From the NCBI RefSeq assembly GCF_000816105.1, contig NZ_CP007140.1, forward strand, positions 1,576,388 to 1,640,387: 64,000 bases of DNA, in the 5' to 3' direction. Positions 1,249-59,920 of this stretch are shown piece after piece. The position numbers were made by a program, and so were the translations under genes. A model generated the notes under the pieces. The model was not told the DNA's origin. It did not search any database and saw only the letters and a program-made list of their open reading frames with translations. The stretch's first letter is position 1. Every line of letters begins with the position of its first letter. The stretch is from Thermococcus guaymasensis DSM 11113. Lineage in GTDB: Archaea; Methanobacteriota_B; Thermococci; Thermococcales; Thermococcaceae.

Positions 1249-1272
1249 TTTCAAACACCTCCAGTTTTTGGT

Positions 1273-1289
1273 CTAGTCTCGTTGACTAG
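1273..1289 (-). promoter_or_regulatory. Inverted repeat in the EF-1 alpha 5' leader
   Basis: Perfect 6-bp arms CTAGTC and GACTAG are separated by 5 bases. The repeat sits 6-22 bases downstream of the probable TATA box of the EF-1 alpha gene (TTTAAAAAG on the minus strand, near 1295-1304), so it falls at or just inside the mRNA start. It could form a small leader hairpin or be a protein site. No function is proven. Confidence 0.45.
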
Positions 1290-1316
1290 GACGGCTTTTT
1301 AAATCTTTCGAACCTC

Positions 1317-1357
1317 GGCCCCCTCGGGCGGGAAACCCGCCTTTTTTCGGGGGGACC
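1317..1357. other. Two-tier GC-rich hairpin upstream of the EF-1 alpha promoter
   Basis: An outer stem GGCCCCC (1317-1323) pairs with GGGGG-A-CC (1350-1357, one bulged A). An inner stem GGCGGG (1327-1332) pairs with CCCGCC (1336-1341) across an AAA loop. Read on the plus strand the inner hairpin is followed by six T's, like an intrinsic terminator. On the minus strand it lies downstream of a second TATA-like box at 1387-1400. It may be a terminator, a small structured RNA or a promoter-proximal element. Confidence 0.4.
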
Positions 1358-1460
1358 TCACGAGTTCCGTCCATAACTTAAAGAGCGGGTTTAAAAAGTT
1401 AACTAATCGGGTTTGGACTTGAATTTGTCAATTCTGAGTGATGCAAAAGAGGAGAACTCT

Positions 1461-58547: not shown

Positions 58548-59774
58548 ATGGACGTGGAGGTTCTTCTCGTCCTGTTAGTGGGTTCACTTGCCGGTGTTCT
58601 CACATCTTATACTGATCTTAAGACGGGTTTTATCTTTGACAACCACGTCTTTCCCCTCCTGGCCTTGGTCGAAAAGCTCAAAGGGCTCGAAGAGGAAGAC
58701 GATAACCTGCCCCTCAACCCGTTCCTTCTGAAGATACCCGTACCCGCTGTAGAAGTTGGCATACTCCTTTACCTCTACCTCGGCTTAAAGTCAGGGGACG
58801 TTATGCTGGCCCTCTCCGGGATAATCGGATTCCTCCTCGGCCTAGTCCTTGGTCTGGTTCTTTACTATGCTGGGGCCTGGGCCTCAGGTGACGCCCTCCT
58901 TCTCGCCGGCTTCTCGGCCCTCTTACCGTATCCCCTCCATTACGCCAGTGTTGTTGCTCCGTATGAGACAAAGTACCCCCTCTACCCCGTTGCGATCCTT
59001 TTCAACAGTGTCCTTGCCATATTCCCCTTCCTGTTCCTCTACGCCCTGGGAGTGCTGATCGTCCGGAAAAAGACCGAGAGGCTCAAGCAGGTACTTTTTG
59101 AGAAGGCCAACCTCTCAGTTGAAGTCGCTCTCTGGCTCGTTGCGGGGATAGCGGTTTCAATAGCCCTCCAGAATGCGGGAATAGCTCTTCCCTCTGTCGT
59201 AAGGTACCTACTGACGATAGTCCTCATAGCCGTCTTTGGAAAGTACAGGAGGGCCGGCGATGTGATAGGGCTGGTTTCTTTCGCTTACCTCGTCTATCTC
59301 CTACGGACGGATGCAGTTTACAGCTTCATCAAGCTGGCCATCGTCCTGTACCTGTTCAAGGTGTTCTTCTCTGTTGTTAAAGTTCTTCGTGAAGAAGCCC
59401 TCGTTGAAGAAGTTACCGTCGATGAACTCAGAGAGTGGGACATTCTCGGAGAAACGATTTACATTGAGGACGGTGAGGTCAAAAGAGACCGTTCGGGCTT
59501 TTTTGAGCTGCTCGTGAGGGCCATTAGGGAGGGAGATCTAAGCGTGCTCACATCCCCGGTGAGGGGTGAAGTGATCGCGTCCCCTACGGCCGAGGGGCTG
59601 TCCAGGGAGCAGATTGAAAGGCTGAAGGGACTCGTTGATGAAGGAAAGATCGAGAACAGGTTCCTCAGGAAAAAGGCCATGCCCTTCGCACCGAGTATCT
59701 TCATCGGCTTCCTCATTGCCTTCTTCTGGGGCGATATATTCTGGTGGCTGGTACTTAAAACCGCTGGACTTTGA
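58548..59774 (+). CDS. Prepilin/preflagellin peptidase, A24 family, with extended C-terminus
   Basis: Membrane aspartic peptidase of 408 residues that should cut class III leaders. The catalytic aspartates are Asp23 in YTDLKTGFI and Asp115 in ASGDALLL. About eight helices span 1-265. A soluble segment (about 275-385, [19 protein letters not shown]... [18 protein letters not shown]) and a last helix (about 385-402) are extra compared with FlaK-type enzymes of about 230 residues. The small pilin gene just upstream is the likely substrate. Confidence 0.88.
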
Positions 59775-59830
59775 GGGTCAGGGAAGGGCGTGATCGTCAC
59801 AGCTCGGCAAAGCAAAAGGTCATCATCCCC
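59773..59830 (-). ncRNA. C/D box guide sRNA
   Basis: On the minus strand: terminal GGGG, box C AUGAUGA (59820-59826), a 12-base guide CCUUUUGCUUUG (59808-59819), box D' CCGA (59804-59807), spacer GCUG, box C' UGACGA (59794-59799), a 12-base guide UCACGCCCUUCC (59782-59793), box D CUGA (59778-59781), then CCC pairing with the 5' GGG. Both guides being exactly 12 bases and the total of about 58 are those of archaeal 2'-O-methylation guides. D' and C' each differ from consensus by one base. The 3' end overlaps the peptidase stop codon region on the other strand. Confidence 0.78.
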
Positions 59831-59890
59831 TGTAGGCCCGACCGGAACCCCCGCATCACTCCTCAGCGGAGAGGGCGGGCAGCCGGGCCC
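59828..59890 (-). ncRNA. H/ACA box guide sRNA
   Basis: A 63-nt RNA numbered from 59890. Lower stem 1-7 (GGGCCCG) pairs with 51-57 (CGGGCCU), followed at once by ACA (58-60). The upper stem 20-25 (CUCCGC) pairs with 37-42 (GCGGGG) and ends in a k-loop: U26/U36, then tandem G27-A35 and A28-G34, the L7Ae site. The upper stem base is 14-15 nt from ACA, as the rule for pseudouridine guides requires. Pocket strands are about 8-19 and 43-50. A TATA box lies about 25 bp upstream of base 1. Confidence 0.85.
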
Positions 59891-59910
59891 GGGGAAAGTT
59901 AGGCCGGAAC

Positions 59911-59920
59911 CTTAAAAACC
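59911..59920 (-). promoter_or_regulatory. TATA box for the guide-RNA locus
   Basis: On the minus strand GGTTTTTAAG, centred near 59915. The expected start about 25 bases downstream falls at 59890, exactly the first base of the H/ACA lower stem. It lies between the phosphatase stop and the RNA genes. Confidence 0.65.

What the first reader, a model, noticed from the sequence alone, without database searches (positions are those of the whole stretch)
59773..59890. Tandem H/ACA and C/D guide RNA genes on one strand behind one TATA box
The gap between the prepilin peptidase and the phosphatase encodes, on the minus strand, an RNA with a complete H/ACA layout: 7-bp lower stem directly followed by ACA, upper stem with k-loop (UU plus tandem GA), and 14-15 nt from stem to ACA. 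It runs straight into a C/D RNA with 12-base guides on both sides. A TATA box predicts the start at the first paired base of the H/ACA RNA. The two share about three bases (GGG), so one transcript must be cut or the RNAs overlap. A dicistronic H/ACA-C/D arrangement is unusual.
Basis: partly seen in the sequence, partly recalled or inferred. Interest (0 to 1): 0.8.

Follow-up and report, generated by a model that had tools for sequence, protein, structure and literature searches.

The report
Known paired archaeal RNA guide gene

Summary
Window 59764-59890 (minus strand) is a full-length match to Rfam RF00065, snoR9 (108.4 bits, E 5.7e-26). [quoted passage not shown] the Pab21 RNP is active in vitro (PMC3726423). 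My H/ACA model finds the P. abyssi copy at 230517-230575, exactly the published Pab21 coordinates.

Of 121 genomes searched, 63 carry a match. The lower stem covaries. A TATA-like box lies 26-33 bases upstream of the H/ACA RNA in 33 of 34 intact cassettes, with no room for a second promoter. Both C/D guides pair with 23S rRNA (predicted targets G55, G207). The best conserved H/ACA target is 16S U871, a prediction.

Corrections: the lower stem is 9 bp, not 7; the guides pair over 11 and 10 bases, not 12.

By-products not seen in the papers read: the H/ACA half is lost or decayed about six times while the C/D half stays, and the cassette has flipped in place between the same two convergent genes.

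The parts
59911..59918 (-). TATA-like box TTTTTAAG, just behind the phosphatase stop codon
   Evidence: first base at -28 from the first H/ACA base; a TATA-like element at -26 to -33 in 33 of 34 intact cassettes
59831..59890 (-). H/ACA guide RNA (ortholog of Pab21): lower stem 59890-59882 with 59842-59834; left pocket 59881-59873; upper stem 59872-59866 with 59854-59848; k-loop 59865-59855; right pocket 59847-59843; ACA 59833-59831
   Evidence: Rfam match; pair counts; own model R2, E 2.2e-16 here and 4.0e-19 at P. abyssi Pab21
59775..59829 (-). C/D guide RNA sR9: terminal GGG/CCC stem, C box AUGAUGA 59826-59820, D' guide 59819-59808, D' box CCGA 59807-59804, C' box GUGACGA 59800-59794, D guide 59793-59782, D box CUGA 59781-59778
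   Evidence: Rfam match; boxes and guides conserved in 44 aligned cassettes; pairing with 23S rRNA
   Evidence: ORF list; a flanking gene in all 50 genomes (window included) where flanks were recognised, but on the other side of the cassette in most
   Evidence: ORF list; flank survey

Best explanation
This is the Thermococcus ortholog of the known Thermococcales gene snoR9 (Pab21 + sR9). One promoter makes one short transcript that starts at the first base of the H/ACA hairpin and runs into the C/D RNA. The H/ACA part binds L7Ae, Cbf5, Nop10 and Gar1 and guides pseudouridylation of rRNA; the best conserved target here is 16S U871 (GGAA[U]UGGCGGG), which is an inference. The C/D part binds L7Ae, Nop5 and fibrillarin and guides 2'-O-methylation of 23S rRNA at G55 (D guide) and G207 (D' guide), predicted by the fifth-base rule. 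Shown here: sequence anatomy, conservation, TATA position and complementarity. Shown by others in P. abyssi: the joint transcript and the in vitro activity of Pab21. From general knowledge of the families: the protein partners and the chemistry. Not shown anywhere in what I read: how the two halves are separated.
For: Rfam RF00065 full-length match. Matches in 63 of 121 genomes, 50 above cut-off. Published identity of RF00065 as Pab21 plus snoR9 in one P. abyssi transcript 230,449-575(-), Pab21 at 230,517-575 (PMC4652768); my searches place the P. abyssi copy at exactly these coordinates. LeARN paper states that sR9 holds both a C/D and an H/ACA RNA (PMC2241582). Pab21 binds L7Ae at a k-loop and its RNP modifies its substrate in vitro (PMC3726423). 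Covariation: 95.6% of cells paired, 5 pairs with changes on both sides, 26 such cells against 9.6 in shuffles; sliding the partner by one column drops pairing to 58% or less. TATA-like box at a fixed distance from the H/ACA start, and near the C/D start in most genomes where the H/ACA part is gone. Guides complementary to 23S and 16S.
Against: No expression data for this organism. D' (CCGA) and C' (GUGACGA) boxes deviate slightly from consensus. The H/ACA target is not unique by complementarity: 16S U1260 and 23S U1583, U1066 and U1316 score nearly as well in many species, and the paper with the tested targets (Muller 2008) was not held.
Confidence: 0.96

Rival explanations
1. The transcript is never cut: H/ACA and C/D halves stay joined as one bifunctional RNP, as in eukaryotic composite scaRNAs such as U85.
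For: In most aligned cassettes only zero to two bases lie between ACA and the C/D terminal stem. P. abyssi RNA-seq reports one transcript over both parts (PMC4652768).
Against: In G011, G021 and G042 a few extra bases separate the parts, and the C/D part stands alone in several genera, so joint function is not required. Many P. furiosus C/D RNAs are circularised, which would need release (PMC7994747; not shown for sR9).
Confidence: 0.2
2. Chance match: a G+C-rich hairpin next to C/D-like motifs without function.
For: None beyond the G+C-rich sequence.
Against: Rfam E 5.7e-26; conserved guides, boxes and stems in dozens of species.
Confidence: 0.005
3. In this species the H/ACA half is decaying and only the C/D half works.
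For: The H/ACA half is absent or decayed in ten relatives.
Against: Here both stems, the k-loop, ACA and both pocket arms are intact and score 75.4 bits with the family model, and the conserved guide elements UUCC and CCCGCC are kept.
Confidence: 0.03

Closest known systems
snoR9 (Rfam RF00065) = Pab21 H/ACA sRNA plus sR9 C/D sRNA of Pyrococcus abyssi
   Same: Full-length covariance-model match; same order and strand of the two RNAs, same guide cores, same fold
   Different: Small sequence changes (one extra base in the left pocket, D' box CCGA, compensatory stem changes); the three Pyrococcus loci showed no match to the two flanking genes of the window, unlike the Thermococcus loci
Other Thermococcales H/ACA sRNAs: HgcE/Pab105, HgcF/Pab35, HgcG/Pab40, Pab91
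   Same: K-loop or K-turn hairpins with ACA that guide rRNA pseudouridylation
   Different: Not joined to a C/D RNA in the descriptions read; only weak cross-matches to the Pab21 model
Eukaryotic composite C/D-H/ACA scaRNAs such as U85 (from general knowledge)
   Same: Both guide types in one RNA
   Different: Eukaryotic, in Cajal bodies, snRNA targets; homology not tested

Membership tests
snoR9 (RF00065) | score above the curated gathering cut-off over the whole model | tested here: met
   108.4 bits against 90, model 1-128/128
snoR9 (RF00065) | ortholog of the described P. abyssi gene | tested here: met
   P. abyssi copy found at the published coordinates by both models; conserved order and guides
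archaeal H/ACA sRNA | lower stem, pocket, upper stem of 10 layers with k-loop, ACA 14-15 bases from upper stem | tested here: met
   9-bp lower stem, 7 bp plus three k-loop layers, 14 bases to ACA; rule from PMC4652768
archaeal H/ACA sRNA | guides pseudouridylation of a defined rRNA uridine | tested here: inconclusive
   best conserved candidate 16S U871, but rivals score close; activity of the ortholog Pab21 shown in vitro by others (PMC3726423)
archaeal C/D sRNA | C, D', C' and D boxes with guides of about 10-12 bases and a terminal stem | tested here: met
   all present and conserved in register
archaeal C/D sRNA | guides complementary to rRNA | tested here: met
   11 and 10 contiguous pairs with 23S rRNA; target cores present in all 30 23S copies read
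archaeal C/D sRNA | 2'-O-methylation of the rRNA base opposite the fifth guide base | not testable with these tools
   predicted G55 and G207 of 23S; no modification data
dicistronic sRNA gene | one promoter and one transcript for both RNAs | tested here: inconclusive
   a single TATA-like box and no room for a second; the transcript itself is shown only in P. abyssi by others

The most novel reading that the evidence does not exclude
The H/ACA and C/D halves stay joined as one archaeal bifunctional guide RNP that couples 16S pseudouridylation with 23S methylation, with the H/ACA half as a removable 5' module that has been lost about six times, the promoter then serving the C/D half directly.
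Probability: 0.12. Interest if true: 0.5.

Novelty: already known. Interest (0 to 1): 0.18.

Why it matters
As a gene it is a known member of a known family, so it mainly confirms annotation. The comparative by-products could interest specialists: a joint guide gene whose H/ACA half has been lost repeatedly while the C/D half is kept gives a natural test of whether one rRNA pseudouridine is dispensable in Thermococcales, and the in-place inversion of a promoter-plus-RNA unit between two convergent genes is a neat case of modular sRNA evolution.

Tried and rejected
23S U1066 as H/ACA target: strong in Thermococcus, but the 5' side is poorly complementary in Pyrococcus (GGGGGGAG), so it was set behind 16S U871. 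The first structure string for the H/ACA alignment was off by one column, so model R1 was discarded and replaced by R2. Weak second snoR9 hits in G062 and G042 (L046, L047): these are the known H/ACA families HgcE and HgcF, not paralogs; the third, in G023 (L048), was not scanned but its sequence is nearly the same as L047. Muller 2008 and the RNA-at-92-C paper are not in the library.

Full report
What is there. Rfam scores the whole stretch 59890-59764 as one member of RF00065, snoR9, at 108.4 bits (E 5.7e-26).

Anatomy. The H/ACA RNA has a 9-bp lower stem, a 9-base left pocket arm, an upper stem of 7 bp plus U-U and two G-A layers of the k-loop (10 layers), a 5-base right pocket arm, and ACA 14 bases from the upper stem. 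In 25 orthologs 95.6% of pair cells are standard pairs, 5 pairs show changes on both sides, and slides of the partner by one to three columns fall to 58% or less. The C/D RNA has boxes C, D' (CCGA), C' (GUGACGA) and D in register with 44 aligned cassettes.

Promoter. TTTTTAAG begins 28 bases upstream of the first paired base. In 33 of 34 intact cassettes the best TATA-like site begins 26-33 bases before the H/ACA RNA; P. abyssi is the exception, with its best-scoring site at -19. In G063, G065, G067 and G069, which lack the H/ACA part, a TATA-like site lies about 31-37 bases before the C box region; G062 has one at -31 as well as one at -9; G029 and G060 have no convincing one. The two RNAs are separated by only a few bases, so no second promoter fits.

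Targets. The D guide pairs over 11 contiguous positions with 23S 52-62, placing G55 opposite the fifth base from the D box; the D' guide pairs over 10 positions with 23S 204-213, placing G207. The target cores are present in all 30 23S copies read, from the window's genome and 28 relatives. For the H/ACA RNA, 16S U871 in GGAA[U]UGGCGGG is the 16S site with the best conserved complementarity across 19 species, and guide changes in G028, G034 and G021 keep the pairing by G-U wobbles. Other sites come close (16S U1260; 23S U1583, U1066, U1316), so this is a prediction only.

Known status. PMC4652768 says that RF00065 is Pab21, that the gene was annotated as C/D RNA snoR9 at 230,449-575(-) in P. 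[quoted passage not shown] My searches return exactly 230449-230575 and 230517-230575 in genome G066. PMC2241582 says that sR9 contains both a C/D and an H/ACA RNA. PMC3726423 reports L7Ae binding to the Pab21 k-loop and about 50% modification of its substrate in vitro. Membership is therefore met and the arrangement is not new.

By-products. (1) The H/ACA half is missing or decayed in G062, G063, G064, G065, G067, G069, G029 and G060, and degenerate in G038 and G052. The H/ACA model finds no good second Pab21 in these genomes; four of the weak matches it does find there (G062, G065, G069, G029) were scanned and belong to HgcE, HgcF and HgcG, while the weak one in G064 was not scanned. A simple parsimony count on a rough two-protein tree gives about six changes. 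(2) The cassette lies between the same two convergent genes in 50 genomes (window included), but in 10 of them, the window among these, it is inverted in place relative to the other 40; the same tree gives three orientation changes. The tree is unrefined and midpoint-rooted, so the counts are approximate. I did not find either point in the papers I could read, but key early papers were not held.

Open point. Whether the transcript is cut, and by what, is not answered by sequence. The GGG behind ACA would serve both as the H/ACA tail and as one strand of the C/D terminal stem here, but in G011, G021 and G042 extra bases separate the two.

Noticed in passing
window 59764-59918 and loci L001-L030, L036-L045, L120-L139: The whole sRNA cassette is inverted in place between the same two convergent genes: window orientation in 10 genomes, the opposite in 40; roughly three flips on a rough tree.
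   Followed up: partly
L037-L045 (genomes G064, G069, G065, G038, G029, G067, G063, G060, G062) and L036 (G052): The H/ACA half is deleted, decayed or degenerate in several lineages while the C/D half is kept; in G064 only the 5' half of the hairpin remains.
   Followed up: partly
L033, L034, L035 (genomes G013, G004, G031): The C/D RNA carries an extra G+C-rich hairpin-like stretch of about 16-17 bases between D' and C' boxes, lengthening the internal loop.
   Followed up: no
window 1272-1368, minus strand: Rfam match to SscA RNA (RF00063), 87.6 bits, a known RNA family.
   Followed up: no
Rfam RF00065 as matched at window 59764-59890: Rfam labels the family only as C/D-box, and its consensus structure pairs the H/ACA hairpin differently (3-base bulge in the upper stem) from the fold with a 10-layer upper stem.
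   Followed up: partly
L064, L077, L079, L102 (genome G063): This relative has two copies of both 16S and 23S rRNA genes, whereas the other relatives searched show one.
   Followed up: no
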